DNA from: Zygnema cylindricum
Lineage: Eukaryota > Streptophyta > Zygnematophyceae > Zygnematales > Zygnemataceae
Assembly (NCBI GenBank): GCA_037447655.1
Contig: JBBHKE010000271.1
Coordinates: 434,001 to 498,000, forward strand
Length of the DNA: 64,000 nt
Direction of reading: 5' to 3'
Shown here: positions 27,594 to 61,032 of the stretch, in pieces
Layout: each line of letters starts with the position of its first letter
Numbering within the stretch: the first letter of the stretch is position 1
Position numbers and translations under genes: made by a program
Notes under the pieces: model-generated
What the model was told of the DNA's origin: nothing
The model's database searches: none
What the model saw: only the letters and a program-made list of their open reading frames with translations

Positions 27594-28423
27594 TGTTGTC
27601 TTTTGGAAAGCTCTCAGTCTCAGAGCAGCGCAGCAGCGCAGCAACTATACAGACAGCAGCGCAGCTGCTATACGGAAGAGCAGCGCAGCTGCTATACAGC
27701 AGAGCTGCGCAGCAGCAGAGCAGCGCAGCAGCGAAGCTGCGATACTAACAGGACAAACGCAGCTGCAGTCACTTTGGATAAGATCCGTACAGACAACGCA
27801 GCTGCTACTATCTTGGATATGATTTGGTGCAGGACACCGCAGCCGCGGGTGATATAAATGGGATCTGGTACGGGACAACGCAGCTGCGATTAATATGAAT
27901 CTAGTCAACGGACGAGATTCATAAGAGTATCACAAGTGACTTAGCCGACAAGTATTTGTACAGTAACTTAATATAGATTCTGAGTAATATTGACTGTACA
28001 ATGATAGATTGGGTTGGCACGATCAAGAACACGTAGATCTCAGTAGGTGGGTTGATTCTGGACGTACCTCTCAGGTACACTGTTATCGGTGGTAGAACAC
28101 CGAAAGTATAAGACTTAGGACTTAGAACATTTTTATGTATCCAGACTTCGAAGTAGTAATACTGCTGACAGTTTTTGGGAAACTTCTGAGTATTATATCT
28201 TGAGTGTTGTTGGGTCAATTGTGCTCAAACTTTGGGAGTTGTCAGTGTTTATGTTACTCTATATTCTGATAGAGTTTTGTGAGATTTGGATGCTTGTATA
28301 AGAATTGGTGATCACTTAAGAACAGCTGTTTGGTAGGATTCTTGATAGCTTCTGAGAGTGTATCATGTCTACTTCTACTACTACTGCTGCTCCTCCACCT
28401 GCACCGGTGGTTGTAGAATAACA
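27594..28423 (+). repeat. LTR 1 of element F
   Basis: 830 bp, TGTTGTCTTTTGG...GAATAACA. The first 270 bp contain many CAGCG units and GCAGCTGC palindromes (E-box core CAGCTG). Near the end, ATG at 28365 opens MSTSTTTAAPPPAPVVVE in the gag frame, then TAA four bases before the primer site. Confidence 0.93.
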
Positions 28424-28438
28424 GGTTATGGGCCTGTC
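28424..28438 (+). other. Primer-binding site of F body 1
   Basis: GGTTATGGGCCTGTC. The first 11 bases are complementary to the initiator tRNA-Met anticodon arm, and the embedded ATG (28428) starts the long gag-pol frame. The second body has the same site at 33525-33539. Confidence 0.75.
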
Positions 28439-30878: not shown

Positions 30879-32602
30879 CGCAACCAGCGCAATCAGCGCA
30901 ATGCGCGGGATCCGACGATCTCAGCCTCAGAATTTCTGGGGGGAAGAAGATCAAGTAGCCGCCTGCAAGCAAGCTCTCACTTTGCCTACTCGGCAGTCTC
31001 AGGGGAGCCCTTGACCATCCAAGAAGCTTTCTTATCACCAGAGCGGAATCACTGGATTGAGGCGGCAAACGACGAAATGAAGTCGATCATGTAGGCTCAA
31101 ACATGGGAGCTCGTGGACCTTCCTCCAGACCGAAAAGCGATCGGCAGCAAATGGGTATTCAAGGTGAAGTTAAATCCCGATAACACCATTGAACGCTATA
31201 AGGCCAGACTTGTGGCGAAGGGGTACAATCAAAAGGAAGGAATCGATTTTGAAGAAACATTTTCTCCGGTTGTAAGATTTCCAACAGTTAGGATTTTGCT
31301 GTCCCTAGCTGCTATAGAAGATATGGAAATTCATCAGATGGATGTAAAAACGGCCTTTTTGCATGGAGAACTAGAAGAGACCATTTACATGCAGCAGCCT
31401 TAAAAGTATGTAGAACCAGGAAAAGAGCACTTAGTATGCAAGTTGCTAAAATCTTTGTACGGCTTGAAACAGGCCCCGAGACAGTGGAATATAAAGCTTG
31501 ATGAATTCTTGACTAGTCTAGGATTTCAAAGAATAAGTTCTGATCACTCTGTCTACGTTCTAAAGGGTGAAAATGGAATAGTTTATATAGCGGTATTTGT
31601 AGATGATTTGCTATTAATTAGCAAATCAATGGCTGAAATTAACAAAATCAAAACTGCTCTAAACTCACGGTTCGAGATGAAAGACCTCGGTGAGGCAAAA
31701 TATATTTTGGGTATCCAGGTAGAGAGGGACAGAAATAAGAAAATAATAAAATTGACTCAAAAAGAGGCTATTGGAAACATGTTAGATGAGTACGGAATGC
31801 GGGGGGCAAAAGGGTGTTTAACTCTAATGGAGTTTCGGCAGAAGTTAGAGGGAGAAGAGACAAAACTAGGTGTTATTGTTAGCGAGTATTTAGAATCAGG
31901 GGAGAATGATCCTATGGCAATAATACCTTATAAACAGATAGTGGGAAGCTTAATATACTTCATGAACTGTACCCGTCCTGACATTGCTGCAGCAGTCGGG
32001 GTACTGAGTAGGAGTCTAGAAAATCCGAGAAAATCTGATCTGGATGCAGCAAAGAGAGTCTTAAGATATTTGGCAGGAACTAAAGATCTCAAACTCACTC
32101 TAGGTGGAGGAGAAGTCAAGCTGCAAACATGGAGTGATGCAAGCTATGGCGACATGCCAAGCCGGAAATCTACCACGCGATTCGTTCTACAAATTGGGAA
32201 CGGTACTTGCTGCTGGAGCAGCAAACTTCAAAAGGTGACAGCACAATCGACAATGGAGTCGGAATATATGGCAGCAAGCTCGGCCCTCAAAGAACTCTTA
32301 TGGGTAAAATCCATGTTACAAGAACTAGGATACATGCAAATTGGTCCACAGGTGATTTGGTGTGATAACCAGGCTGCCATTGCCATTGCTTCTAACCCGA
32401 GTCATCACTTCAAAAGCAAGCACATGGATGTAAGATTACACTTTGTAAGAGAAAAAGTGTTCTCTAGAGTGATTAAATTATGTTAAATTATGTTAATTAT
32501 TATTATTGTGATGCAAAAATGATTGCTGATATGCTCACTAAAGCTCTTCCTGCTCCTAAGCTGAAGTATTGTAGGGAAGCAGTGGGATTAAGTGAATAGT
32601 TG
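30879..32602 (+). pseudogene. F body 1: RT-RNase H region, interrupted
   Basis: Continuation of the polyprotein after TAG at 30876-30878: ISASEFLGGRRSS, then RT ([37 protein letters not shown]) and RNase H (CCWSSKLQKVTAQSTMESEY). RT has FVDD at the catalytic site where body 2 has YVDD. Interruptions: TAG at about 31093 (GAG in body 2), TAA at 31401-31403 in the QPEGF-like motif, and near 32480 a 10-bp duplication AATTATGTTA that shifts frame before MIADMLTKALPAPKLKYC. The last two are shared with body 2. Confidence 0.88.
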
Positions 32603-32694: not shown

Positions 32695-33524
32695 TGTTGT
32701 CTTTTGGAAAGCTCTCAGTCTCAGAGCAGCGCAGCAGCGCAGCAACTATACAGACAGCAGCGCAGCTGCTATACGGAAGAGCAGCGCAGCTGCTATACAG
32801 CAGAGCTGCGCAGCAGCAGAGCAGCGCAGCAGCGAAGCTGCGATACTGACAGGACAAACGCAGCTGCAGTCACTTTGGATAAGATCCGTACAGACAACGC
32901 AGCTGCTACTATCTTGGATATGATTTGGTGCAGGACACCGCAGTCGCGGGTGATATAAATGTGATCCGGTACGGGACAACGCAGCTGCGATTAATATGAA
33001 TCTAGTCAACGGACGAGATTCATAAGAGTATCACAAGTGACTTAGCCGACAAGTATTTGTACAGTAACTTAATATAGATTCTGAGTAATATTGACTGTAC
33101 AATGATAGATTGGGTTGGCACGATCAAGAACACGTAGATCTCAGTAGGTGGGTTGATTCTGGACGTACCTCTCAGGTACACTGTTATCGGCGGTAGAACA
33201 CCGAAAGTATAAGACTTAGGACTTAGAACATTTTTATGTATCCAGACTTCCAAGTAGTAATACTGCTGACAGTTTTTGGGAAACTTCTGAGTATTATATC
33301 TTGAGTGTTGTTGGGTCAATTGTGCTCAAACTTTGGGAGTTGTCAGTGTTTATGTTACTCTATATTCTGATAGAGTTTTGTGAGATTTGGATGCTTGTAT
33401 AAGAATTGGTGATCACTTAAGAACAGCTGTTTGGTAGGATTCTTGATAGCTTCTGAGAGTGTATCATGTCTACTTCTACTACTACTGCTGCTCCTCCACC
33501 TGCACCGGTGGTTGTAGAATAACA
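32695..33524 (+). repeat. LTR 2 (central) of element F
   Basis: 830 bp, nearly identical to LTR 1, and acting as 3' LTR of body 1 and 5' LTR of body 2. It carries the same TAA in the leader peptide as LTR 1. The GGGGAG polypurine tract immediately precedes it. Confidence 0.94.
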
Positions 33525-33528
33525 GGTT

Positions 33529-35979
33529 ATGGGCCTGTCATCAAGAATTCCTATCTTTTCCGGAGATAAGTATGTTTACTGGGCGGATATGGTGGAGACA
33601 CATTTTGAAAATGTCAATCTTTTGGATATATTGGATGGTTCTTTGGATGAATCTGATCCGTCATGGTCTAAGAAAAATACGCAGGCTCGCTCTATTTTGA
33701 AATTTTGTATATCTGAAGACTTAGCTATGTCTCGGATTAAAATGAAAAAAGCTATTGATATCTGGAAATCCATTAAAAGTGATTATGAAAAGGCTAATGT
33801 TCAGGAAGAACTTCTATTGGCTGGAAAAATTTGGGACTATAAGTACACTGGCGGTACAATGGCTGAATATTCTAACAAATTTCGTATTCTTGTAGATGCA
33901 CATGCTTGTGCCGGTGGGGTGTTCCCTCAGTTTCAACAGGCAGCATTGCTCATGCGGGGTCTCCCTCGTAGTATGAAAGGAGCATCTGACATGCTCAAAC
34001 AGAAAGATAACGCTAGCTGGACTTTGCGGTTAGCAATCAATATTTTACTAGAGGAGGAAGCTACATCTAACATTCTCAATATTGAGCAAGTAGAGGCTTT
34101 TAATTCAGACTTTGGAAAGAAAAGTCAATTTAATCAGCAAAGTAATCAATTTACCCAATTGAGACAGTTTAATATGGGGGGAAATAGAAAATCCAACAAT
34201 GCATGTTTTTATTGTAGTGAGAGAGGTCATGGATACAAATTCTGTCCTAAACTTAAACAAGCTAACGATACAGGTTTATACAGGCCAGGATGGCAACAAA
34301 GTCAGTTTTACAAAAGCTTCACGAGGCCTACACCTCGTGGAAATGCACTGTTTTCAGCTTCTTCATCACTCCAAGACGAAACTCTGACATTTTCTGAGGA
34401 GGACGACACAGATCTATTCGCTATGGCGGCAGCAATGGAAGGCGCAAAGGACCCTGGATGGATTATGGATACAGGAGCGTCAGCGCATATGTGTTGGAAC
34501 AAGGCCATCTTCAAAAATCTGAAAGCAACGCCGGAGAAAAATATTTATTATGCTTGTAGAATGAGTGTCCAAACTCGTGCAATGGGTGATGTGTCCTTGC
34601 TAGTTGATGTGGATGGAAAACCAATTGAAAGGACTCTTCACAATGTCTTAATTGTGCATGACTTTAAGAAAAATCTGTTTTCTACGTCGTTGGTTGAGAG
34701 TAAAGGCTTTGAGGTCAGTTTGAAAATTGGTCGGCAGTTTGTTAGCAAAAACGGCAAGATTGCGGTTACAGGTACTAGAGATAGTAGCAAGATGTATCGC
34801 ATGGATATGGCTAATACAAAAGAAAATGATGTTTTGTACTCTGGTGTTTTGCACTCAGATGAGTTGTGGCATAAAAGATTAGGCCATGTCAACTATGATA
34901 GTTTGAAAAAAATGGTTGTTGCTCGAAAGATAGAGGGTGTATCAATCACAGATGGGCCGGTCAAAACTTGCGATGGTTGCGCTTTAGGCAAAATCCACAG
35001 ATTGCCATTTCCTAACGAGTCTGAGCATCGGTCGACCAAACTTTTACAACAAATTCATTCGGATGTCTTTGGTCCGGCAAAGGTTCCTTCTGCCGGAGGA
35101 ATGAAATATATGGTCACCTTCACAGATGATTTCTCACGGTTTACAAAAGTTTACTTCATGAAGGATAAGAGTGAAGTGTTTGGTCACTTCAAACACTATA
35201 AAGCATGGGCTGAAAAACTTCATAATTCATCTATTTTGCAGCTCAGATCGGACAATGGTGGTGAATATACATCAAAAGAGTTTGAAACCTTTTTACTCGA
35301 GGAAGGCATTAGTCATCTACTGACTGTTCCATATTCACCGGAACAAAATGGGGTGTCGGAACGGCTGAATAGAACTCTCACGGAAAGCTCTAGATCTATG
35401 CTCGCCGATAAAGGTGTGGATCCGAAATTCTGGGTTGAGGCTCTAAATTGTGCAGTTTATATTAAAAATAGGATAGGATCAAGATCGGTAGAAACAACTC
35501 CTTACGAAATCTGGACGGGTAGCAAACCAGATGTTAGCCATTTCAAGGTCTTTGGTAGTCAATGCTTTATATTGGATACGTCTACAGATAGACGGAAAAT
35601 GGAACCGAAGGGATTATCGGGTATTCTGTTAGGATATGATGATCACTCGAAAGGTTATAGAGTCTTTGTGTTTGAAAGGCAGAACATAGTTGTAGCTAGA
35701 AACATCATTGTTAAGGATGAACTAGACTCCATAGATTTATTTCAAATGACAGTGCAGCAAAGGCAACAGAAAGTACAGGAGTATGTCATCTTAGATTGCA
35801 TGCAGGAACTTGTCCCGCAGATTCCACAAACTCCTCAGGAATCAGACTCCCTCCAACTTCCTCACCAACTTCGGGTCCAGATGGACCAAGAGCAGTCAAT
35901 ACAGACCGAACGCAACCAGCGCAATCACGAACACACGGATCGCAACCAGCGCAGTCAGCAAGACACGGATCGCAACTAG
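33529..35979 (+). CDS. F body 2: Gag-protease-integrase polyprotein (816 codons)
   Basis: Same length and domain order as body 1: Gag, knuckle CFYCSERGHGYKFC, protease DTGASAHM, integrase HHCC and intact D-D-E. The frame starts at the ATG in the primer site (33525-33539) and ends at the same TAG after TDRN. Differences from body 1 include EEL for EKL near residue 93, DNASWTLRL for DKASWTLQL, ACRMS for ACGMS and LIVHD for LFVPD. The equal length and shared stop show the two bodies arose by duplication of an already defective copy. Confidence 0.88.
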   Translation: MGLSSRIPIFSGDKYVYWADMVETHFENVNLLDILDGSLDESDPSWSKKNTQARSILKFCISEDLAMSRIKMKKAIDIWKSIKSDYEKANVQEELLLAGKIWDYKYTGGTMAEYSNKFRILVDAHACAGGVFPQFQQAALLMRGLPRSMKGASDMLKQKDNASWTLRLAINILLEEEATSNILNIEQVEAFNSDFGKKSQFNQQSNQFTQLRQFNMGGNRKSNNACFYCSERGHGYKFCPKLKQANDTGLYRPGWQQSQFYKSFTRPTPRGNALFSASSSLQDETLTFSEEDDTDLFAMAAAMEGAKDPGWIMDTGASAHMCWNKAIFKNLKATPEKNIYYACRMSVQTRAMGDVSLLVDVDGKPIERTLHNVLIVHDFKKNLFSTSLVESKGFEVSLKIGRQFVSKNGKIAVTGTRDSSKMYRMDMANTKENDVLYSGVLHSDELWHKRLGHVNYDSLKKMVVARKIEGVSITDGPVKTCDGCALGKIHRLPFPNESEHRSTKLLQQIHSDVFGPAKVPSAGGMKYMVTFTDDFSRFTKVYFMKDKSEVFGHFKHYKAWAEKLHNSSILQLRSDNGGEYTSKEFETFLLEEGISHLLTVPYSPEQNGVSERLNRTLTESSRSMLADKGVDPKFWVEALNCAVYIKNRIGSRSVETTPYEIWTGSKPDVSHFKVFGSQCFILDTSTDRRKMEPKGLSGILLGYDDHSKGYRVFVFERQNIVVARNIIVKDELDSIDLFQMTVQQRQQKVQEYVILDCMQELVPQIPQTPQESDSLQLPHQLRVQMDQEQSIQTERNQRNHEHTDRNQRSQQDTDRN

Positions 35980-37703
35980 CGCAACCAGCGCAATCAGCGC
36001 AATGCGCGGGATCCGACGATCTCAGCCTCAGAATTTCTGGGGGGAAGAAGATCAAGTAGCTGCCTGCAAGCAAGCTCTCACTTTGCCTACTCGGCAGTCT
36101 CAGGGGAGCCCTTGACCATCCAAGAAGCTTTCTTATCACCAGAGCGGAATCACTGGATTGAGGCGGCAAACGACGAAATGAAGTCGATCATGGAGGCTCA
36201 AACATGGGAGCTCGTGGACCTTCCTCCAGACCGAAAAGCGATCGGCAGCAAATGGGTATTCAAGGTGAAGTTAAATCCCGATAACACCATTGAACGCTAT
36301 AAGGCCAGACTTGTGGCGAAGGGGTACAATCAAAAGGAAGGAATCGATTTTGAAGAAACATTTTCTCCGGTTGTAAGATTTCCAACAGTTAGGATTTTGC
36401 TGTCCCTAGCTGCTATAGAAGATATGGAAATTCATCAGATGGATGTAAAAACGGCCTTTTTGCATGGAGAACTAGAAGAGACCATTTACATGCAGCAGCC
36501 TTAAAAGTATGTAGAACCAGGAAAAGAGCACTTAGTATGCAAGTTGCTAAAATCTTTGTACGGCTTGAAACAGGCCCCGAGACAGTGGAATATAAAGCTT
36601 GATGAATTCTTGACTAGTCTAGGATTTCAAAGAATAAGTTCTGATCACTCTGTCTACGTTCTAAAGGGTGAAAATGGAATAGTTTATATAGCGGTATATG
36701 TAGATGATTTGCTATTAATTAGCAAATCAATGGCTGAAATTAACAAAATCAAAACTGCTCTAAACTCACGGTTCGAGATGAAAGACCTCGGTGAGGCAAA
36801 ATATATTTTGGGTATCCAGGTAGAGAGGGACAGAAATAAGAAAATAATAAAATTGACTCAAAAAGAGGCTATTGGAAACATGTTAGATGAGTACGGAATG
36901 CGGGGGGCAAAAGGGTGTTTAACTCTAATGGAGTTTCGACAGAAGTTAGAGGGAGAAGAGACAGAACCAGGTGTTATTGTTAGCGAGTATTTAGAATCAG
37001 GGGAGAATGATCCTATGGCAATAATACCTTATAGACAGATAGTGGGAAGCTTAATATACTTCATGAACTGTACCCGTCCTGACATTGCTGCAGCAGTCGG
37101 GGTACTGAGTAGGAGTCTAGAAAATCCGAGAAAATCTGATCTGGATGCAGCAAAGAGAGTCTTAAGATATATGGCAGGAACTAAAGATCTCAAACTCACT
37201 CTAGGTGGAGGAGAAGTCAAGCTGCAAACATGGAGTGATGCAAGCTATGGCGACATGCCAAGCCGGAAATCTACCACGCGATTCGTTCTACAAATTGGGA
37301 ACGGTACTTGCTGCTGGAGCAGCAAACTTCAAAAGGTGACAGCACAATCGACAATGGAGTCGGAATATATGGCAGCAAGCTCGGCCCTCAAAGAACTCTT
37401 ATGGGTAAAATCCATGTTACAAGAACTAGGATACATGCAAATTGGTCCACAGGTGATCTGGTGTGATAACCAGGCTGCCATTGCCATTGCTTCTAACCCG
37501 AGTCATCACTTCAAAAGCAAGCACATGGATGTACGATTACACTTTGTAAGAGAAAAAGTGTTCTCTAGAGTGATTAAATTATGTTAAATTATGTTAATTA
37601 TTATTATTGTGATGCAAAAATGATTGCTGATATGCTCACTAAAGCTCTTCCTGCTCCTAAGCTGAAGTATTGTAGGGAAGCAGTGGGATTAAGTGAATAG
37701 TTG
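35980..37703 (+). pseudogene. F body 2: RT-RNase H region, interrupted
   Basis: Frame 36112-36504 holds the RT N-terminus (MTIQEAFLSPERNHW ... [10 protein letters not shown]) uninterrupted, since the TAG of body 1 is GAG here. TAA follows at 36502-36504, then 36544-37587 covers RT with YVDD and RNase H up to HMDVRLHFVREKV. The 10-bp duplication near 37580 shifts the frame before the MIADMLTKALP tail, as in body 1. This body is the less damaged of the two. Confidence 0.88.
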
Positions 37704-49911: not shown

Positions 49912-51300
49912 TAATCGAAAGAATCCACGAAAGCCATCTATTTCGGCATCAGAGTTTGAGCGTTGAAGAAGAAGCAGCAAAAGACTGCAAGAGAAACAAG
50001 TTAACAACAAGGTAACCAAACTGTCTCATCCCGAAGAACCCTAGACTTATGGTGAGGCGATGAAATGCCCTAATAAGAACCGATGGAGGGCACCATTAAT
50101 GAAAAGATGGCTTCAAATATGGCAGCCAATACGTGGGAATTGGTGGATTGTCCCCCTTATAAGAAGCCAATCGGGTGTAACTGGGTATTTAAATTGAAAC
50201 TCAACCCAAATAACACCATTGAGCCCTACAAGGCTCGGTTAGTGGCAAAGGGATTTTCCTTGAAAAAGAGAGAATTGACTACTAGGAGACTTTTGCTTCG
50301 GTTGTCAGGTTTCTCTCTGTTCGGATACTTCTCAGTATGACGGCAGCGAAAGACATGGAAGTGCATCAGATGGACATAAAAATGGCCTTCCTACATGGAG
50401 AGTTAGAATAGGAGATTTTTCTGCGACAGCCCGAAGGATTTGTGGAGCAAAGGGAGGAGAGCAAGGTATGCTGATTGATCAAATCTTTGTATGTGCTGAA
50501 ACAGGTGCCTCGGCAATGGAACAAGAAGCTCGATGAGTTTCTTACAAGTTCAAGATATATTCAGATCAGCTCAGATCACTCAATTTTTTTTTTTGAAGAT
50601 TAGGAAGGAATTGTTTTTATTGCAATTTAGGTTGATGACTTGCTTATTTTAAGTAAATCTATGGATAAAATAAATAAGTTGAAAAATGATCTAAAAGGAA
50701 GATTTGGAATGAGAATATGGGAGAAGCAAGGTGTATTTTGGGAATTTAGGTAGAGCGAGACAGAGATAGAAAGCTAATAAGATAAACTCAAAAGGAGGCC
50801 ATTGGAAACATGTTAGAAAGATTCGAAATGGACAAGGCTAATAGTTGTACCACTCCTATAGAACTAAAGAATGGAAGTGAGGGGAGTGTGGAAGAAGGAG
50901 TGATCATCTTGGATGATGAGGTAGGCTCGGAAGAGAAACGATTTATACAAACCATCCCTTATAGACAAGTAGTGGGCAACCTAATATATTTTATAAATTG
51001 TACACGTCCGGACATAGCCGCAGCTGTAGGAGTACTAAGTAGGAGTCTCAATGCTCCCACTAAGAAAGATTGGGAGGCAGCTAAGAGAGTCCTTAGATAT
51101 CTCTTAGGGACTAGAGATCTATGGTTGCATTTGGGTGGGAACAATAGTGACATCACCACTTGGAGTGATGCCAACTATGGGAATGCTCCTATGAGGAGAT
51201 GCACGTCTGGGTATGTAATGTATGTGGGTGATCGGGCATGTTGCTAGAGGAGCAAACAGCAAAAGGTCATTGCTCAGTCCACCATGGAGGTTGAGTACAT
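49912..51300 (+). pseudogene. Element B, part 2: linker, RT and first part of RNase H
   Basis: It resumes the B frame with KNPRKPSISASEFE, then RT (50083-50340: VDCPPYKKPIGCNWVFKLKLN) with later stops and a degraded catalytic region near 50620-50640, and RNase H (50810-51247: NCTRPDIAAAVGVLSRSL ... DANYGN). It stops at TMEVEY where G inserted; RNase H resumes at 60700. Confidence 0.9.
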
Positions 51301-52539
51301 TGTCATGCCGCAAGACGTCGACGAGTATTATTGTTGATTCTTATACTAATTGGGGTAAAAGGGAATATTACAAGTCGGTGGCGGAGTGTTCAATTGAAGG
51401 TACGGACGAAACGGAGGTCGTACCATGTTACCGGCATGAAATCAGATTGCGGTACGACATTGGATTTTGCAAATTTGAACAGCTCCAAACGTGACATATT
51501 ATAGACTGAAACGGTGACATACCTGACACATGTCCAAGTCGTGAACCCTCGGAGGTTCATGCATTGTTTTTGTTGCATAGGGAGGGTTTTCATCCTCGAG
51601 GTGTAGATGTAAGGCATCCCGAGGCGGCCACGTAGGGGCCACCTCTAGAAACAGGCAGCGTTTGTACATAGAAAGCTGCTTGCTCAAAGACATATAGAAA
51701 TTAGTGTAGCTGTACGATAGACAACAACAGAAGATAAAGGCCATATGGCTGCGTAGGATTAGTTGCAAATTACAGTTTGGGAATCCAACATTGGAGAGTT
51801 GTCGTTTTTTGGCAATATATATTTTCGCGATTTGTCGAACCTCTTTTTGTTTTTTTCAATTAGCATTTCTCAGCGCCATATTTAGTATCAGTTAGTGGTT
51901 GAGTTAGGGTTTCTCTCTCTCGATCCTTAGTCTCTGGCTAGCTGTTGCCTCTAAGATTTTCTTATCTCTCTTTTCTGAAGTAAAGTCCTTACCTAATCTA
52001 CCAGCGCAAGCCAGCCTGCAAGGTTTCTCTCCAAACTGTGTCTCACTTGCCGTGCTCTGCGAATTCTAGAGTGTGAATCTTGTGTTTTATTATTGTTGTT
52101 GCGTGGTTTTCGTCGTTTGTCTCTTTTTTCTTCAAACTTTGGGAGTGCTTATTTTTTCGGCGGTCTCATCCGGTTAAGAAAAGTCGGTTGCCTGCTAGTA
52201 GGACTCTTGTAGGGAATATTGAAGACTTCAGGGCCTAGTGGCTACTGTCGCAAATATTCCCGTGCTATCATTTGCTTTTCTTTTTCAATCAAGCAATAAT
52301 TAGTTGTCTTGTTTTCTTTTCCAACCTAGTGGTTTTCTTTGGATTGCTTTAATTTGTTTTTATTTTCAATCTTTAGGGTTTCGTTGCTCGGTGGGCTTGG
52401 AGTGGGATATTTGTGATTTGATTTGTGAATCCGGTATAGTTTCCTCTTTTTGTCTACCTATCGGATTAACACACTCATAAAACCTAGCAAACCTTAAAAA
52501 ACTTATAAAAGAAAAAAAAATCCATATTAAAAACCAAGA

Positions 52540-52687
<148 letters not shown>

Positions 52688-53041
52688 TAGCTTGCACGAA
52701 TTATCACATAAAATTATAACTACTTTAATAGTTGGGTAGAGCGTGGCTTAAAGATGATATGCGTACCCTAATAGGCTACTAACTACTTTGGCATTGAGTT
52801 GGGTGTGATAACGATAACTTGGAATTGGAGCATCGTTGGGAGATATTTAAAGTATCCTACTGATGCTATCGCTTTTGGTGAGTAACCGATCCTTGTGGGT
52901 GCAGGCGGGATATAGGTTATCAAGCGGACTCGTTTAGAGGGTTAGAGATCTTACCGAAGGTTGTGCTATTTTTCTTCGCATAGGACTTCATCGTTGCATG
53001 GTCCTAGATCTCACGTTGATCGATCTTGATTAACGATTTTT

Positions 53042-53185
53042 TGCTTTATTACATCTGGCCGTGTTTGCCCTGAATAGTTTCCTTCTTTATAACATCTGGC
53101 CGTGTTGGCCCTGAACAGTGTCCTGCTTTATTACATCTGGACGTGGTGGCCCGGAATAGTTTTCTGCTTATTATATCTGGCTCTA
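53042..53185 (+). repeat. 41-bp tandem repeat, about 3.5 copies
   Basis: Units begin around TTTATTACATCTGGCCGTG, with ACATCTGG at 53051, 53092 and 53133 and a diverged ATATCTGG at 53173. It lies in the G leader, just upstream of gag. Confidence 0.85.
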
Positions 53186-53302
53186 AGTTGCTTTGCATAG
53201 GTGACATGAGTTTGCTTGGCATGGCGTGACGTGAGTGGGATTGAGAAAGACAGTTTACGAGTAGACTAACTTTGATGATACAGAGAGACTAAACTCTTTC
53301 GT

Positions 53303-54601
53303 GTGTCTGGTTGGCGGTTATTAGCATACTTTTGTGTGTGTTCGGCATTTAGCTGCATTCGGATAAGACAATCTTCTGGTTACATGCCAACAGACTGGAA
53401 TAATTTACAGTTCCCAGTTTGTACCACCAGAAGCTCAGGTGCTTACCGGGGGCCGCCCAAAGAGTTGATTATGGTAGGCTCCCCTCCGATATCTTTTCCA
53501 AACTCAGCAGTTCAATCTCCATTTTTAGGATCACCCAGTTAATCGAGATCTGGTCTTTCTTCTCTCCATAGGTCTATGTTGTCTGTTTCTTCATCTTTCA
53601 CCCACAGTTCGGCGGAAGATTCGAACACTGACTCGCTTGACATACAGGGTCTAGGTTTACCGCCGTCAATTTTCTCAGTGGGCTGTACCATACACACTAA
53701 TCATAGTCCTTTTAACATGGACATGGCCTCGTCCATGGACACCGGAGGTGGTAAACATCATTTTTGTTTTTCAGGTCTGAATGACACCATGTCCTTGTCC
53801 CACTTTCGCATGCTTTTCAATACCAAAATGCGTGACCTTGCGTTTCGGTACCAAGACCGTTACGACCTGCGGGTCGCTTTTTATTTACTAGGGAGATACC
53901 TCAGAGAATCTGCGTTATCCCTTTATACACGGAAATATGAGTAAATTTGTGCTATGACTGAAATAGCACCCGCCTATTCTGGAGCTTTGGCCATAATTGG
54001 CAGCCTCGAAATCCCTTTCTAACTCGCTGTCCCGGTTGTTTATGACTCTGTAGGCAACGAAGTTTCACCTGAAATACTTGAGGTCCCTCATCAATTTGCA
54101 GTGGTAGCTAAGGTTGCAATTCCGGCTAGACCTGAAATGCTGGTCCCTCTAAGAGATCTAGTCTCGTTAATTTTTGATTTATTTGAAGACGAGTATCGAA
54201 TGCAGAATCTTGACCAAGTCAAAGAATTAATGAATTTTGAACGCAAACTGGGTGAAACAGCCCCGGCATTGCGGTCACGTATGGAAACTTTGCGTGAGGC
54301 CCTACCCGATCTAATGTCAACGGCTGAGGCGGTACAAAAATTTGTGGGTCAATTTCCCACACAATCTCGACGGTTGATTCAGAATTGTCTGACCGAAGCA
54401 TATGGCCTTAAATTCACTTTCGAGCAGGCTGCAGAGTATGCTGTAAAGTACGAAATGCAGACAGCTGGTGGGACGCTCACGAGCGGCCAAAGCCTTCACC
54501 TAAAGATAACCCTAATCCAAATCCTAACTAGAATCCTAACCCGCGCAACTCATGGCCCAACCCAAGACCTCCAAGGGCCCTTGCCATGGGATTTTTACTG
54601 A
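53303..54601 (+). pseudogene. G: Gag region
   Basis: One frame carries 53303-53542, 53576-53944 and 54101-54601, broken by three in-frame stops (at 53542, 53944 and near 54020). The middle has a capsid-like stretch: LSHFRMLFNTKMRDLAF then YDLRVAFYLLGRYLRESA. The end has MNFERKLGETAPALRSRM and QSRRLIQNCLTEAYGLKF, helical and typical of gypsy Gag. The next frame overlaps it by 16 nt. Confidence 0.7.
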
Positions 54602-55380
54602 CGACGCCTGGAGTGCGTATATGTTTCCGGTGCGGTCACAGTGGTCACGACGCACGCAGCTGTCCAGACAAGGCAGCCACGTGTACTCAATGCAATCAAA
54701 CAAGTCATTGCGTACAGCGATGTCATATTAAAAATCCGAATTTCAGTTATCAAAATCAAATTAAAAACGGCCGTATACCTGCTCGCTCCGCTAAATTGGT
54801 CACTCCACCGAAAAGGGAAGAGAAGGACACTCCCACCAAAATCAGTAAGTGGGACCGAGATAGAGCAGAGATGATGGCAACCATGGCGGCCATGATGAAG
54901 GAGGAGTTTGCCGGGCTTATGGCGCAGGTTAAACTGCAATTAATTAGAATGGCCCGAACCGCAGTCCATATGCCCTCTTTTGCTGGGCGATCTCTTCGAG
55001 AGTCAACTGTCCAACAACGGGCAACTCTTTTCAAAGGGACTCCTGATCATAATCGTGAGTCTAAATCCATTAACACTTGCATACCATTATCTTTCGCTAA
55101 AGAACCTAAAACCCTTATCCTGGAAACAGGCCCTAGCATCATCGCTGAGGCCTTAACCATTCTAGAGGGGAGTATACAAGATGCTTATAAGGTCAAAGAA
55201 CTGTTAGCAATACTGTCCACTATGCTTCCCGAATTGAATAGCGAGGCTAAATCCTCAGATCTAACTCAATCTGCATTTGCATTACAAGCGCTTCAAAACC
55301 ATTGTAGTACCCTATCTCTTCAAGCAATTACTCTAAAAGAGCGTTCCAGTTTTACTCCACACAGAAGTTTTTATGGATAA
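54586..55380 (+). CDS. G: nucleocapsid with two zinc knuckles
   Basis: 264-codon frame, one frame back from Gag. Residues 12-25 are CFRCGHSGHDARSC and residues 32-45 CTQCNQTSHCVQRC, two CX2CX4HX4C knuckles that bind nucleic acid in Gag. A Lys-rich linker and a Met-rich MMATMAAMMKEEFAGLMAQ helix follow. The rest (to residue 264) is not recognised. Whether the shift from Gag is decay or programmed frameshifting cannot be told from one copy. Confidence 0.7.
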   Translation: MGFLLTTPGVRICFRCGHSGHDARSCPDKAATCTQCNQTSHCVQRCHIKNPNFSYQNQIKNGRIPARSAKLVTPPKREEKDTPTKISKWDRDRAEMMATMAAMMKEEFAGLMAQVKLQLIRMARTAVHMPSFAGRSLRESTVQQRATLFKGTPDHNRESKSINTCIPLSFAKEPKTLILETGPSIIAEALTILEGSIQDAYKVKELLAILSTMLPELNSEAKSSDLTQSAFALQALQNHCSTLSLQAITLKERSSFTPHRSFYG

Positions 55381-56065
55381 CAAGTTAGGCGTGTTCACAG
55401 TTAATGGGGTAGCCCCAACTTTACCTCTCATGGACAAAGGACAAAACCCATTTTCCTCGAAATCAGATTTTGCCAAAAAAATAGGTCTTACTGCGAATAC
55501 ACTACAACCCACTACCACTCGTTTGTTGACTTCCGCAGGAACCACAGAACCAGTCTTAGGTATGATAAAAGAGCCACTGTGTTTTCAATTTCAGTGTCAA
55601 TCAGAATCCGATTTCGCAAAAATATACGCTCACGCCTTTGTCACCAAGTGTAGTGATTATGAGTGCTTGATCGGCAAGCATCATTTTCCGAGTGGGGGGG
55701 GGGGGGGGGGGGGGGTGGTGGGGGATCAAACATTTTCGTACAGACCAAACAATTTTACGAACCGCAAAGTTTGCTTACCTCTTATCTCGGCCCGACAACC
55801 CATGCCTACTACGGCTCATTCCGCGTTTGTCTTGCCAGCCTATGCTGCAGTTGGCATAGGTGCTGATATTCTTGAATCTTTAACAACGGAAGAAATCTTA
55901 CCAGACCCCCCGGGAATGCCGAAATTATTTGGCACCCCAGGTTTTATTATTGACTCTTCAGATTTTGACAGATTGTATAAGTTTACTGTACCGATTCCTT
56001 TATTCAATATTCCAGATCCACTCGCGATTTCAAGAGATCCTTCCGCGTTTTTACCGATTAAATGA
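55373..56065 (+). pseudogene. G: retropepsin-like domain and linker
   Basis: The frame starts with FTVNGVAPTLPLMDKG, resembling the strand-catalytic loop of gypsy proteases (LLDTG), with DKG in place of DTG. Then FAKKIGL, PVLGMIKEPLCFQFQC and AHAFVTKCSDYECLIGK follow the retropepsin pattern. A run of 22 Gs at 55694-55715 encodes poly-Gly and probably disturbs the frame. A linker with GFIIDSSDF and TVPIPLFNIPDPL leads into the methyltransferase. The protease assignment is moderate. Confidence 0.6.
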
Positions 56066-56089
56066 AAGCCAATAAGTTTACAACCTAAC

Positions 56090-57010
56090 CCGAACGCTCT
56101 GTTTATCTTAGGCCTGTTTGCACGAATAGGTACCACACTTTCTCTTATGCCTTAGGAACGGTATTCTAATCAAACAATATTATTGCGTAGATATTGACCT
56201 TTTGGCTAGACGCGCTCAGTTGCACCACTGTCAAATCTTACATGAACAATACCCTCACCTCCTATCACGGTCAGCGTTTCATAGAATACATTCAGCTTTA
56301 CCACAGGATATCGTCTGATAGGTAATCACCACCTGGCGAAGTTAGAATTAATCGATCTCCTTTTCGCAGGATGGGAATGTCAAGGTATATCTAGAGTCGG
56401 GAAGGGTTTAGGTCTAGCAAATCCGCGCACTAAACTGTTCTTTGAGGTAGTGCGTCTTATCCATTTCTTTCAGTCGTTGAAGCGTCCTTTTGGATACGCT
56501 TTAGAAAACGTCGCGGCTTATAATGACCCCGACCTACGGTTCTCACAGATTACAAACGTATCGAATAATTAATTGGACCACTACTCATAATCGATGCGCA
56601 CGTCATGGGTCGCTGGCCCACCAGGTTCGTTCCAAATGGACTAATCTGGTGGACATAGGCCGGCTCCGAGAAGCTAATCGCGCTGTTCGACCACCTAAAC
56701 TTTTCATTCAACAAGCACTTCTTCCATTTCAAAAGGTCCAGACATGTTTCCGGACAGACTATCCTCCTGCATTTTGTCTTAACACCCATGGTTAGCCGTT
56801 ATGTGCACTTCCTATACTAGTCGCATATCCAAACTCCCATGCAAATTCACATTACGGACCTGCTATGCTTCAGCACACTCATACAGGCAGTCTAGAAGAA
56901 CCTACTGCTGCGGGGCGAGAACTCGTACTCTATTTCATCCCAGGCAATACGGCTCCCCCAGGACTCATTGAGAGGCAGTGTTGGAGCTTACTTGGTCGGG
57001 TTATGGATCC
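56090..57010 (+). pseudogene. G: cytosine-C5 DNA methyltransferase domain, decayed
   Basis: Conserved C5-methyltransferase motifs occur in the correct order over about 900 bp, in shifting frames. Motif I (AdoMet site) LGLFARIGTT is at about 56107-56136. The motif II-like CVDIDLLARR is at about 56182-56212. Motif IV GWECQGIS at about 56371-56394 lies where active enzymes have a PCQ catalytic loop, so the Pro is Glu here and the Cys is kept. LANPRTKLFFEVVRLI follows. Motif VI ALENVAA is at about 56499-56518, a motif VIII-like AHQVRSKWTNL at about 56612-56650, and a motif IX-X-like block with LVAYPNSHA, TGSLEEPTA and LLGRVMD at about 56820-57000. Such enzymes methylate cytosine in DNA. It sits between protease and RT of the same element, so it is element-borne and not a host gene. 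At least three frameshifts or stops make it non-functional in this copy. Confidence 0.82.
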
Positions 57011-57420
57011 TCAATCCTTGTCATTTTTCTAGGGCATAAGGTTTGCAGCCGGTCGATACGCACAGAACCATCCATCTACATTAGCTTGGGGGGGGGGATA
57101 CACCATTCAAACACATTGCTTCTAAATCCTCACCTTCTCTTCGGGGTACATCTTTTGAGCTCTCTCTTTTTCCTCCTTCCACCAAGTCTGACACAAATCA
57201 TACTATTTATGATTTCTTGGACCGTAGTCACATGAGTTGGTCCATCCCAGCATACACAGCGGCTAGATCTTCGATACCAGTACGCGCGGTCTTACACGGG
57301 ACTGCTGCATTTCCATCTAAAAATTGGCATCATGCAGTAAATTGTTTGCAACAGCTCCCAGTTAAGTTTTAGCTGGGACAATCTTTAGTCGCGGATTGAC
57401 AGCTAGAGTTTGCACAGGCC

Positions 57421-58041
57421 ATGGAAGCCATTACCATCAGCGCACCTAAAAAACCAACGTGGAAACTTGGGACGGGACTAACAAAACCAGAACACAAACT
57501 GTTAAATGGAGTCATAAAACAACACAAAGACGCGTTCGCTTACTCCATAAAAGATTTAGGTCGACACACCACTTACAGAATGTCCATTGACCTGGAAGAT
57601 GACAGACCCATATTCAAACCCAAGCATCGTCTGTCAAAAACCAAATGGGAAGCAGTGGATAAACGATGCGCAGAGTTAGAAGAGGCAGGACTGATTTATA
57701 TGTCCGACTCCACCTTTGCGGTGCCTACCATCGTGACTCGTAAAAAAGACGTAGAGGGGAATTTCACAGAACGTCGTATGTGCGGGGACTATCGAGAATA
57801 TAATTCCCGTAAAATCCAGGACCGACATCTAATGCTTTTGGCGGAGGACATTTTTGATCACTTCGGAGGGGCTAAATATTTTAGCATTTTGGATCTACGA
57901 CAGGGGTTTAACCAAATTGAAATAGAGGAGAAAGACCAACATAAGACTGCATTTTGGGGAAGTGATGGGCGTTGGGAATGGTCAGTTATGCCCTTTGGCT
58001 TGAAAAATGACCCGGCCGTATTCCAAAAGGTTATGGATTAG
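57421..58041 (+). CDS. G: reverse transcriptase, N-terminal and palm part
   Basis: 206-codon frame. Gypsy RT motifs: YRMSIDLEDDRPIFKPKHRL, then RMCGDYREYN, KYFSILDLRQGFNQIEIEE (the first catalytic Asp is in LDLRQGF) and SVMPFGLKNDPAVFQKVMD. A one-base shift follows; the catalytic box reads CCYIDNLIIAS at about 58062-58095, so the expected YIDD is YIDN. The region 57011-57420 before it is not assigned. G-rich tract at 57088-57098. Confidence 0.88.
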   Translation: MEAITISAPKKPTWKLGTGLTKPEHKLLNGVIKQHKDAFAYSIKDLGRHTTYRMSIDLEDDRPIFKPKHRLSKTKWEAVDKRCAELEEAGLIYMSDSTFAVPTIVTRKKDVEGNFTERRMCGDYREYNSRKIQDRHLMLLAEDIFDHFGGAKYFSILDLRQGFNQIEIEEKDQHKTAFWGSDGRWEWSVMPFGLKNDPAVFQKVMD

Positions 58042-58889
58042 TCTTAGAGGGGTTTAAGTTTGCTTGTTGTTACATTGACAATTTAATCATTGCTTCGGTC
58101 TCTATGGAGGAACACGCAGCACATATAGAGTGGGTATTAAAAGAGTTGAAAAGGGTGGGTCTCAATTGTCATCCTGCCAAATGCATCTTTGGGGCTGAAG
58201 GGGTACCATATTTTGGGCATTTTATCTCATTCGAGGGAATTACTTCACTAGAAGTCAAGGTAGATGCGATCAGTAAACTATCGACCCCAACAGATTTAAC
58301 AAGCCTGCGTGTATTCTTAGGTTTGGCTAATTATTATCGGAGGTTTGTTCTTGGGTTTTGCACGCTCGCATCCCCACTAAATGAACTCTTAAAAAAATCA
58401 GCGTCGTTTACTTGGGAACCCCCGCAGATTGAGGCATTCTAAGGATTAAAAACGGCACTGTCCACGCTCCCACTCTTCGTCCACCAAATCATAAGTTACC
58501 ATTTTGCCCACAGACAGACTTTGGTAAGCCCGGTATCGCCGCCAACCTAACTCAGCATGAAGCTTACAGGTGAGGAATATGTGGTGGCTTATGCTAGTCG
58601 AAGCAACAATCAGGCCGAGTCGAACTGCAGTAGTTATGAAAGGGAGTGCCTAGCCGCAGTTTGGGGAATTGTGCATTTCCGCCATTACGTTTATGGCCGA
58701 CAATTTACTCTTCTTACTAACCATCAACCATTGCATTGGCTCATGACCAATGACAATCTATCCGGCAAGTTAGCCCGTTGGGCCCTCATTTTGCAAGAAT
58801 ACGATATGGAGATCATCCATCGACCGAGGCTACTTAGTTTGAAATGGCGACGGTCTTTCACGAAACCCTTTACCAAATTCTGCAGATAA
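58042..58889 (+). pseudogene. G: RT thumb and RNase H
   Basis: 58104-58442: RT thumb (HPAKCIFGAEGVPYFGHFIS, LGLANYYRRF). A stop at 58440-58442 and a short damaged stretch follow. 58557-58889: RNase H-like domain (VVAYASRSNNQAE, YERECLAAVWGIVHFRHY, LTNHQPLHWL) where functional gypsy enzymes usually have TDHQ. All lie in the same frame as the integrase downstream. Confidence 0.85.
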
Positions 58890-58961
58890 TGGAGTACGAC
58901 AGGATTTTGATGACAAACCTATTGCATCGCTTTCAGCTGGAGACACCTGGTTTACAGTTTT

Positions 58962-60461
58962 TTGGGCCCCACCGTGCACAAAAATAAACACGATCCATGG
59001 AGGGACAGCGCTCTGGTCTTATTTTTATCAACCCAGTCCTTCCGAAAAGGCACTACACCAAGAGAGGAGGACCGTGTTCGCAAAAGAGCGCATAATTACC
59101 TATGGATGGGAGGTTCCCTTACCCGTCTCCTCGCAGATGGAAGTCATCGGCATGTTCCTCGGCCGACAGAATTTCTATCACTTATCGATCACATTGATAC
59201 TGATCTGGGACATTATGGTACTAAACGAGCTTTGAGTTTGGTACAAGCATGTTATTGGTGGTCAGGCATGCAGGTAGACGTTGCGGCCGTGTTACAAGGA
59301 TGTAGCACCTGTGACCGGTTGCGGACCTCCTTCTCTGACCGTCAGACTACACTTCAACCTTTGCCTATCCGAGGTCTTTTCCACAGGTGGTCTTGTGATC
59401 TGGCAGGTCCTTTTCCCGTCTCGCGAAGGGGCAAGCAATACCTCATGATCATGATCGAAAATTTTAGCAAATGGGTGGAAGTTGTGGCCCTCTCGCACAA
59501 AACTGCCAAACACACAATCGTTGTTTTCAAGGAGCATGTGCTCCTCCGATATGGAGCTCTGGCAGAAGTCTTTACAGACAAGGGGACCGAGTTCCGTGGC
59601 GAATTCCAGGAAATGTTGGACGAGGCATTGATCGATCACCGTCAAACAAGTCGAGATCATCCCCAGGCAGACGGTTTGGCCGAGAGGGCGGTGCAAACAT
59701 TTAAGCGGGCTCTGCGTAAACATTGCTTGGAGAAACAGATTACTGTGTGGGATGAATCATTGGGTTATATTGTCATGGGTTATCGCATGTCTGTACAGGC
59801 CAGCTTAGCAAATTTCAGTCCCTATTATGTGTTATTTGGTCGACAACCACTGCTCGGTAGAAATATACAGAAAGTTGCTAGTTTTCCTTTGCCGCTTATG
59901 TGTGATTCTCTTTTTTTGGAAGAACTAACCAACCGAGCTTTGGTTTTTGCTAGGGAAATCCCAATGGCCTTTGAAAACTTGCAGATTTCTCAACATCGCT
60001 ACTTGTTACGGTTTGCAACAACTCGCAGTGGTAGTTACTGGCCACAACAAAAACCTTATCGGGTGGGGGACTATGTATATTTGCGTCGGCAAACATTTGA
60101 CACCCTCGACACGGATATCTCGTCTCACATATTGAGGATCACCAAAATCCACTCTAATGGATTATTAAGCCTACAAGGAGCCGACACGCGGACTTTGCGA
60201 GAACATTCAAAAAATTGTGCTCGTTGCTACCTACCTGATCTCTCCCACGGTATGGATTCGTGGCGGATGCCGATCACCGAGGCCACCGAGTGTCAGCTGT
60301 GTCGGCGGTCTGAAGGAGAAACGACAATGCTTCTCTACGACTATTGCTATCTAGGATTTCACATGGAGTGCTTGGTCCCACCTTTGCATGCTATTTCGGC
60401 TGGACAATGGTTTTGCCACGGATGTCGCGACCTACCGGTTGTCGTTCCCAGCTCCCTGTAG
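58962..60461 (+). CDS. G: integrase with C-terminal PHD finger (499 codons)
   Basis: Open frame to TAG at 60459-60461. The HHCC zinc domain is at about residues 87-124 (HIDTDLGHYG ... CSTCDRL). The DDE core has Asp in SCDLAGPFP (about residue 145), Asp in VFTDKGTEF (about 205) and Glu in GLAERAVQTF (about 241), all retained. A GPY/F-like C-terminal domain follows (YRVGDYVYLRR). Residues about 446-491 form a PHD finger: CQLC, then MLLYDYC, GFHMEC, VPPL and WFCHGC. The third zinc ligand, normally Cys in LLCD, is Tyr here. PHD fingers read histone H3 tails; by analogy with chromodomains of chromoviruses it may guide integration (inference). The integrase itself looks catalytically complete. Confidence 0.88.
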   Translation: MGPTVHKNKHDPWRDSALVLFLSTQSFRKGTTPREEDRVRKRAHNYLWMGGSLTRLLADGSHRHVPRPTEFLSLIDHIDTDLGHYGTKRALSLVQACYWWSGMQVDVAAVLQGCSTCDRLRTSFSDRQTTLQPLPIRGLFHRWSCDLAGPFPVSRRGKQYLMIMIENFSKWVEVVALSHKTAKHTIVVFKEHVLLRYGALAEVFTDKGTEFRGEFQEMLDEALIDHRQTSRDHPQADGLAERAVQTFKRALRKHCLEKQITVWDESLGYIVMGYRMSVQASLANFSPYYVLFGRQPLLGRNIQKVASFPLPLMCDSLFLEELTNRALVFAREIPMAFENLQISQHRYLLRFATTRSGSYWPQQKPYRVGDYVYLRRQTFDTLDTDISSHILRITKIHSNGLLSLQGADTRTLREHSKNCARCYLPDLSHGMDSWRMPITEATECQLCRRSEGETTMLLYDYCYLGFHMECLVPPLHAISAGQWFCHGCRDLPVVVPSSL

Positions 60462-60695
60462 GCTAAGGAGCTGGGTGGGGGGGGGGATTCCATCCTTTTT
60501 CCCTCTTTACCTACTAAACTTACCGTTGTACTTTTATTTGTTTGTTTGTTTTCTTAAACTGATTCATTAATATTTCTGTTGGTATATATTCTTTGCCTAT
60601 GGTTTTAGCATACATATGTGCGGTCCCTACATTTTTGGCAACGCTAATTGGGTATGATGCATGTCATTTAACGATTTTATGCTCATGCACGACAA
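60462..60695 (+). other. G: 3' end region
   Basis: A polypurine-like tract GGAGCTGGGTGGGGGGGGGG (60468-60487) is followed by about 208 bp of T-rich DNA ending GCTCATGCACGACA at 60695. The final 11 bases match the end of element S. If the tract is a true PPT, a TG-starting 3' LTR should follow at once; ATTCC follows instead. Confidence 0.65.
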
Positions 60696-61032
60696 CATGG
60701 CCTCTTGCTCTACTGTAAAAGAATTTATGTGGGTCAAGTCTCTGCTTCGTGAGCTTGGTCACCTTAAGAGTGGTGTGCATAATTTTTTTTGTGGTAATCA
60801 AGCAGCAATCGCTATTGCTGCAAATCCTAAATATCATTTTAAAGCCAAACATATGGACATTAGACTCAGTTTTGTTAAAAAGAAGGTAGAAAACAAAAAA
60901 ATCAGTTTAGAGTACAAACCAGATAGCGAGATGGTAGCAAATATGATGACCAAACTTGTGCCTTCCCCTAAGCTAATTTTCTGCCGGAGAAGTGTGGTTT
61001 GAAATTAAAGAGTGATTAGAAAATAAGAGGAG
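60696..61032 (+). pseudogene. Element B, part 3: end of RNase H
   Basis: After the duplication acat the B frame resumes as MASCSTVKEFMWVKSLLRELGHLKSG, with CGNQAAIAIAANPKYHFKAKHMD and MVANMMTKLVPSPKL. The catalytic CDNQ is CGNQ. The polypurine tract AATAAGAGGAG directly precedes the 3' LTR at 61033. Confidence 0.9.

What the first reader, a model, noticed from the sequence alone, without database searches (positions are those of the whole stretch)
55373..58041. Cytosine DNA methyltransferase embedded in a gypsy-type polyprotein
Seen: ordered C5-methyltransferase motifs (LGLFARIGTT, CVDID, GWECQGIS, ALENVAA, AHQVRSKWTNL, LLGRVMD) between the protease-like and RT domains of element G, all inside one insertion bounded by a 4-bp duplication. 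Known: retrotransposon-borne DNMTs have been reported in dinoflagellates and in charophyte algae, interpreted as possible self-methylation of the element. Inference: G belongs to, or parallels, the charophyte case; its family could methylate its own or host DNA and so use the host silencing system.
Basis: partly seen in the sequence, partly recalled or inferred. Interest (0 to 1): 0.92.

Follow-up and report, generated by a model that had tools for sequence, protein, structure and literature searches.

The report
Jumping gene carrying a DNA methyltransferase
A decayed copy of a gypsy-type jumping gene carries a DNA-methylating enzyme domain inside its own polyprotein; sister copies in the same genome keep the domain under selection, and about half of its known relatives share its unusual active site, so it bears on the open question of why some mobile elements carry the very mark that is used to silence them.

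Summary
Window 51301-60694 is a decayed gypsy-type element with a perfect 4-bp duplication (ACAT), inserted in a copia-type gene. Its polyprotein order is gag zinc knuckles, protease-like, C5-methyltransferase (DNMT), RT/RNase H, integrase, PHD finger. The piece with motifs IV-VI matches Pfam DNA_methylase at E 5.9e-9. Another copy has one 2395-aa open frame with the same domain and identical repeats; 13 full-length domains of this genome show purifying selection. Protein searches give 113 relatives, nearly all retroelement polyproteins, named ones from Klebsormidium, Closterium, Marchantia and Haematococcus: the kind published as KnitGypsy-Dnmt3. Two features go beyond what I found in print. 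(1) The proline before the catalytic cysteine is glutamate in the window's family and in about half of the rows (E 53, P 59, D 1 of 113 readable), other catalytic residues staying; the tree needs several switches. (2) The element has DIRS-like split repeats (A-int-B-A-B) yet 4-bp duplications and a DDE integrase, its ends at an internal GACA-NN-TGTC site, as if a circle were opened there. Activity, target and host species are not shown; the K. nitens domain gave no activity in yeast (called inconclusive). Verdict: a new variant of a known kind.

The parts
51301..60694 (+). whole element, A-internal-B form, TGTCATGCC...GCACGACA; both flanks are a copia-type gene
   Evidence: alignment to L011, ends and duplication, flanks read
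51297..51300 (.). left copy of the 4-bp target-site duplication ACAT
60695..60698 (.). right copy of the 4-bp target-site duplication ACAT
51301..52256 (+). repeat part A (single copy here; present twice in full-length copies)
   Evidence: match to A1/A2 of the C1344 copy
52212..52266 (+). hairpin GGGAATATT...AATATTCCC across the end of A; possible primer site (self-priming), inferred
   Evidence: fold -23.7 kcal/mol for the 75-nt stretch, no shuffle control
53288..55371 (+). gag-like part with two CCHC zinc knuckles (about 54622-54723); broken
   Evidence: tblastn to L011 frame, translation; no Pfam match
55373..56062 (+). retropepsin-like part; the DTG of the C1344 copy reads DKG here
   Evidence: motif only; no Pfam match in the window
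56108..57008 (+). C5-cytosine DNA methyltransferase domain, motifs I to X, motif IV GWECQGIS; broken into two frames
   Evidence: Pfam E 5.9e-9 on 56285-56569; motifs; colinear with intact domain
57481..58830 (+). reverse transcriptase and RNase H (limits by alignment, about)
   Evidence: RVT_1, colinear with L011; Ty3 RT is the best solved relative of the C1344 copy
59202..59654 (+). integrase: H2C2 zinc binding and rve core
60291..60425 (+). PHD finger at the C-terminus of the polyprotein
   Evidence: PF00628 E 6.2e-7 for the 515-aa piece
60477..60486 (+). G-run, polypurine-tract-like
   Evidence: sequence
60487..60694 (+). repeat part B (single copy here; start approximate)
   Evidence: matched to B of the C1344 copy

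Best explanation
The window holds a dead copy of an autonomous gypsy-type retrotransposon whose polyprotein includes a DNMT3-like C5-cytosine methyltransferase between protease and reverse transcriptase and a PHD finger behind the integrase. Shown here: the domain is a regular, selected part of this family in this genome and is shared with a large set of related elements. Inferred: as part of Pol it is packed with RT and integrase and acts as a methyltransferase on the element's own new cDNA (or its RNA:DNA hybrid) before or at integration, so that the copy enters the genome already marked; the PHD finger would steer the complex to chromatin with a given histone mark. Also inferred: the DNA that integrates passes through a circle opened at an internal GACA-NN-TGTC site, giving A-int-B-A-B (from a two-LTR circle) or A-int-B (from a one-LTR circle, as in the window, or later B x B recombination). 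Rough likelihoods: identity as a retrotransposon DNMT 0.97; domain functional in the family 0.9; acts on its own cDNA 0.45; circle opening 0.4.
For: Pfam and motif hits. A copy with one 2395-aa open frame gag-protease-DNMT-RT-RNase H-integrase-PHD and A repeats identical over 931 of 931 bases. Selection: 13 of 44 loci have a full-length DNMT domain without stops (7 EC, 6 PC; loci partly chosen for open frames, one place twice); dN/dS 0.10-0.32 in the 7 of 21 EC pairs with measurable dS, the other 14 saturated at synonymous sites (pS 0.78-0.91) with dN 0.11-0.21; PC family 0.11-0.35 in 14 of 15 pairs, one pair identical. 36 of 40 RT matches keep the DNMT block whole or in part, the other 4 truncated. 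DNMT and RT trees agree on the main pairs and on one large clade. Fold model of an EC relative: DNMT domain pLDDT mostly over 90; DNMT3A/3B are the best methyltransferase matches among the 50 listed, TM up to 0.83 of the target. Catalytic Cys 112 of 113, motif VI Glu 111 of 114, the two motif VIII Arg 111 and 113 of 114. Ends: A-int-B-NN-A-B with duplication in C1344, C1974, C2254; A-int-B with duplication in window and C2053.
Against: No activity data. The KnitGypsy-Dnmt3 domain did not methylate in yeast (inconclusive per its authors, PMC5890265 section 10). Motif IV has Glu for Pro, so ordinary catalysis cannot be assumed. Two of seven copies with both ends read (C783, C2577) lack a matching duplication, and 11 of 18 copies examined gave no readable pair of ends. 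In-place recombination between B copies gives the window's A-int-B form without any circle. In the window copy the loss of C relative to the C1344 copy is highest at CG and CHG, which host methylation alone would explain; it is one pair. A PHD finger is not seen in Closterium-type rows that run past the integrase.
Confidence: 0.6

Rival explanations
1. The domain is an active methyltransferase that works on chromatin around the insertion or on host genes, letting the element tune its own silencing and cost to the host.
For: Purifying selection; PHD finger found in 51 of 78 rows, of which 20 lack RT in the row and are mostly fragments; CG and CHG decay in the window copy.
Against: Nothing here tells cDNA from chromosomal targets; the domain is inside Pol, which acts in the particle (general knowledge).
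Confidence: 0.2
2. The Glu-Cys enzymes have changed chemistry or substrate (for example RNA, RNA:DNA hybrid, or a base change other than plain 5-methylation).
For: Glu directly before the catalytic Cys in 53 of 113 readable rows, and in 41 of 74 representatives below 70% identity, in deep and repeated branches (at least 6 changes on the tree, 3 forced by strong branches; one clade rejected, p-AU 0.0005), while Cys, motif VI Glu and motif VIII Arg stay.
Against: Sister branches differ between P and E, which speaks for similar work; the AdoMet-site motif I is kept in outline.
Confidence: 0.2
3. The domain is catalytically dead and kept as a nucleic-acid-binding or structural part of Pol.
For: Changed motif IV; no activity seen for the K. 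nitens domain (PMC5890265, section 10).
Against: Catalytic Cys, motif VI Glu and motif VIII Arg nearly invariant in 115 rows.
Confidence: 0.1
4. The DNMT is a passenger picked up by a few dead copies.
For: The window copy is broken.
Against: An open-frame copy with identical repeats, selection, shared place in many elements.
Confidence: 0.02

Closest known systems
KnitGypsy-Dnmt3 of Klebsormidium nitens (de Mendoza et al. 2018, PMC5890265; abstract, sections 9-11 and passages read)
   Same: DNMT3-like domain inside the Pol frame of a gypsy element, purifying selection, repeats arranged as in DIRS elements but gypsy enzymes; its likely sequence (P0035, Klebsormidium nitens KFL_009030040, partial) has the DNMT before RT and lies among the same rows on both trees
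   Different: Motif IV Pro-Cys and motif VI Glu-His-Val in P0035, against Glu-Cys and Glu-Asn-Val here; the words PHD and target site do not occur in the main text of that paper (figures and supplements not seen)
SymbioDIRS-Dnmt3 of Symbiodinium (same paper)
   Same: DNMT3 domain in Pol, A-coding-B-A-B repeats; de novo CG methylation shown in yeast
   Different: DIRS class with tyrosine recombinase, not DDE integrase; a row with a Dam domain (P0041), probably DIRS-like, is a very long branch on the DNMT tree
Ty3/gypsy elements (Ty3 as solved reference)
   Same: RT/RNase H of the C1344 copy has Ty3 as best solved match, E 8.9e-80; H2C2 and rve integrase in the window
   Different: Plain LTRs in Ty3 (recalled); split repeats and ends inside the repeat here
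DNMT3A/3B
   Same: Best solved sequence relatives of the domain (E 7.8e-11 for L011, 1.2e-14 for L009) and of the fold of an EC relative
   Different: Motif IV Pro-Cys-Asn in DNMT3A, Glu-Cys-Gln here

Membership tests
C5-cytosine DNA methyltransferase (PF00145) | profile match over the curated cut-off | tested here: met
   36.2 bits against cut-off 22
C5-cytosine DNA methyltransferase (PF00145) | motif IV Pro-Cys (taken as invariant; recalled) | tested here: not met
   Glu-Cys in the window and in 7 of 7 full-length EC-family domains of this genome; catalytic Cys itself kept. Rows with Pro-Cys lie on neighbouring branches, so this is read as a variant of the family
C5-cytosine DNA methyltransferase (PF00145) | methyl transfer to cytosine | not testable with these tools
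   needs an assay
gypsy (Ty3-type) retrotransposon | gag, protease, RT, RNase H, integrase in this order | tested here: met
   (gag and protease by motif only, no Pfam match)
gypsy (Ty3-type) retrotransposon | plain direct LTRs at both ends | tested here: not met
   split repeats A-int-B-NN-A-B
KnitGypsy-Dnmt3-type element | DNMT in Pol, before RT | tested here: met
KnitGypsy-Dnmt3-type element | common descent with the K. nitens element | tested here: inconclusive
   same rows on both trees, but not the nearest row, and no host DNMT3 or DNMT-less gypsy in the trees apart from DNMT3A and Ty3
KnitGypsy-Dnmt3-type element | DIRS-like repeats with gypsy enzymes | tested here: met
DIRS element | tyrosine recombinase and no target duplication (recalled) | tested here: not met
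   DDE integrase; 4-bp duplication in 5 of 7 copies with both ends read; no separate search for a recombinase was made

The most novel reading that the evidence does not exclude
A widespread set of retroelements, with members in green algae and a liverwort, holds a distinct class of C5-methyltransferase whose supposedly invariant motif IV proline has switched with glutamate again and again under selection, and which marks reverse-transcribed DNA; in the same elements a DDE integrase inserts a DNA circle opened inside the repeat, a route otherwise proposed for tyrosine-recombinase elements (recalled).
Probability: 0.25. Interest if true: 0.88.

Novelty: new variant of a known kind. Interest (0 to 1): 0.72.

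Why it matters
Elements that are silenced by cytosine methylation yet carry and keep a cytosine methyltransferase are a paradox that a published study opened and left unsolved (PMC5890265, section 11 read). The set found here is wide (113 database proteins, a few of them remote), has natural Pro-Cys and Glu-Cys forms side by side in one genome, and has young copies with an open domain, so activity, substrate and benefit become directly testable. The motif IV change would also touch the rule that Pro-Cys is invariant in C5-methyltransferases (recalled), and split repeats with target duplications offer a natural case for circle integration by a DDE integrase. [quoted passage not shown]

Tried and rejected
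Host identity: the nearest row that I saw in the genome table of PMC11096116 (passages) is Zygnema cf. cylindricum, 359.8 Mb in 3,587 scaffolds, against 352.8 Mb in 2689 contigs here: not a match by size alone; paper search listed nothing on these figures; left open. Host-type DNMT3 for the tree: the third protein search (39 rows, 2 of them already known) returned mainly DNMT pieces of the same kind, so monophyly against host DNMT3 genes is not tested. Plain LTR reading of the window copy: no 3' repeat found. Search for a split repeat in the PC-family copy C1374: only a 52-bp coding repeat at the edge of the fetched stretch, inconclusive. Print: searches (7 to 20 titles and abstract starts shown of 7 to 541 papers each) showed no paper on Glu-Cys motif IV in C5-methyltransferases or on gypsy elements with split repeats and target duplications, apart from the figure legend in PMC5890265; only open-licence PMC papers are held. 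Rows dropped: P0013, P0040, P0042, P0043 before the DNMT tree; RT rows spanning under 380 aa before the RT tree (47 of 78 plus Ty3 stayed); 27 of 76 proteins were given to the fold job. Both trees are quick trees with SH-aLRT support only. P0042 has the DNMT before RT but lies inside the other clade on the RT tree (support 93, long branch), against a single move of the domain; it was not on the DNMT tree. In one search the pattern hit for L011 was spurious (wrong strand); its true motif is GWECQGMS. One search failed in its script and was redone.
Full report
What is there. The window is G000:C207:434001-498000 of an unnamed 352.8-Mb genome. From 51301 to 60694 it holds a gypsy-type element, inserted into a copia-type gene, with ACAT on both sides. 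The piece 56285-56569 is a significant DNA_methylase match, E 5.9e-9; RT, integrase and a PHD finger follow. The copy is broken: against the 2395-aa open frame of the C1344 copy it is colinear in seven slightly overlapping pieces with 21 stops.

The family in the genome. PF00145 gave 123 scored matches of 782 candidates in this genome. The window's DNMT stretch gave 41 matches, its own included and one place as two pieces, with 40 of 220 candidates scored. Two families were read: one with motif IV GWECQGMS (window, C1344 and others) and one with GWPCQGYS (C1374 and others), the latter also ending in a PHD-like finger. Of 40 RT matches of the window's family (of 355 candidates), 26 have a listed DNMT match just upstream, 2 more through, and 8 of the other 12 show the block, whole or in part, when read; in the last 4 the element's sequence stops 0-200 bp upstream of RT. 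So no intact copy without the block was seen.

Selection and age. Of 44 loci examined, partly chosen for open frames and with one place twice, 13 have the full domain without stops. In the EC family 7 of 21 pairs have measurable dS, with dN/dS 0.10-0.32; the other 14 are saturated at synonymous sites (pS 0.78-0.91) with dN 0.11-0.21. In the PC family 14 of 15 pairs give 0.11-0.35 and one pair is identical. Repeats A1 and A2 are identical in C1344 (931 of 931) and differ by one base in the stretches read of C1915 (576) and C829 (473); older copies differ more (C1974 98.5%, C2254 91.9%, C2526 86.5%).

Relatives. Three protein searches gave 113 proteins, a few of them remote (P0041, P0043, P0104, P0113). 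Of 78 aligned rows of the first two searches (76 proteins and two of this genome), 13 have the DNMT before RT, 45 between RNase H and integrase, 20 lack RT in the row; 51 show a PHD finger, and Closterium-type rows that run past the integrase do not. On the DNMT tree this position changes once, P0042 having been left out; on the RT tree it changes twice, because of P0042, a long branch. Of the 76 proteins, 39 carry no precomputed PF00145, and 33 of these 39 are Glu-Cys rows, so annotation by that profile alone misses many.

Motif IV. In 115 aligned rows the residue before the catalytic Cys is P 59, E 53, D 1, gap 2; Cys is kept in 112 of 113. At under 70% identity the 74 representatives have E 41, P 30, D 1, gap 2. 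The quick tree of 75 rows needs at least 6 changes, 3 forced by strong branches, and one clade of the 50 non-Pro rows (49 E, 1 D) is rejected, p-AU 0.0005. Pro to Glu needs two base changes; the one-step residues Ala and Gln do not occur among the 113 readable rows, which points to two favoured states (inference). PMC4802922 (passages read) says that in M.HhaI the Asn of motif VI bonds to the backbone carbonyl of this Pro; a carbonyl remains with Glu, so the fold can stay (inference). In K. nitens-like rows the partner Asn is His (12 of 115 rows, all with Pro). So both partners of this contact vary in the set, in different rows.

Fold. A model of P0016, an EC relative, has a DNMT domain with pLDDT mostly above 90; among the 50 best Foldseek matches the methyltransferases are DNMT3A, 3B and 3C, with TM up to 0.83 of the target, and the rest are foamy virus and Ty3 integrases. 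The model says nothing on catalysis.

Ends. C1344 reads A1-int-B1-GC-A2-B2 with TTGG on both sides. Eighteen copies were examined for ends (window, C1344, ten, six). Both ends were read in seven: duplications in C1344, C1974 (AGGT), C2254 (ATGT; its right end reads GAAA for GACA), window (ACAT), C2053 (GTGG); none in C783 and C2577. C1344, C1974 and C2254 are A-int-B-A-B, the other four A-int-B. The spacer between B1 and A2 is GC in six and AC in three of nine copies read. A G-run stands before B, and A ends at a hairpin where a primer site would be, so reverse transcription would give a repeat B-NN-A, while the integrated ends lie inside that repeat (inference). Opening a two-LTR circle at one spacer gives exactly A-int-B-NN-A-B, and a one-LTR circle gives A-int-B. 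Recombination between B1 and B2 after insertion would also give A-int-B. The A-B-A-B order itself was reported for the K. nitens and Symbiodinium elements (PMC5890265, figure legends); the duplications and the reading are mine.

How it may work. The domain is part of Pol, is kept by selection and keeps its catalytic residues; most likely it methylates the element's new DNA. That is inference. Compared with the C1344 copy the window has lost more C at CG (141 of 795) and CHG (137 of 810) than at CHH (256 of 2153); the reverse comparison is flat (73 of 661, 60 of 627, 244 of 2257). This fits past CG and CHG methylation of the dead copy, which host enzymes could also have made.

Known or new. A gypsy element with a DNMT3-like domain in Pol and A-B-A-B repeats is published. 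New as far as my searches went: the motif IV switch, its breadth, the second position of the domain, the PHD finger, the target duplications with split repeats, and rows in Marchantia and Haematococcus.

Noticed in passing
window 51301-60694 against L011: C lost preferentially at CG and CHG in the dead copy, a footprint like plant-type methylation (one pair).
   Followed up: partly
window 52212-52266: Strong hairpin across the end of repeat A, also present in the C1344 sequence; possible self-priming site.
   Followed up: partly
window 28422-32483 and 33523-37584: Two pairs of open stretches (818 and 360 aa) with the same starts repeat at a spacing of 5101 bases, copia-like, as in a tandem element.
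   Followed up: no
proteins P0003, P0005, P0013, P0017: Marchantia polymorpha rows with Pro-Cys DNMT, P0003 with zinc knuckles and a protease-like part on a 27-Mb contig; no RT in the row, so an element in a land plant is likely but not shown.
   Followed up: partly
protein P0042: DNMT before RT but RT inside the other clade; possible third arrangement.
   Followed up: no
window 55694-55715, 57088-57097, 60477-60486: Three G-rich runs in the element, two inside the coding part of the dead copy.
   Followed up: no
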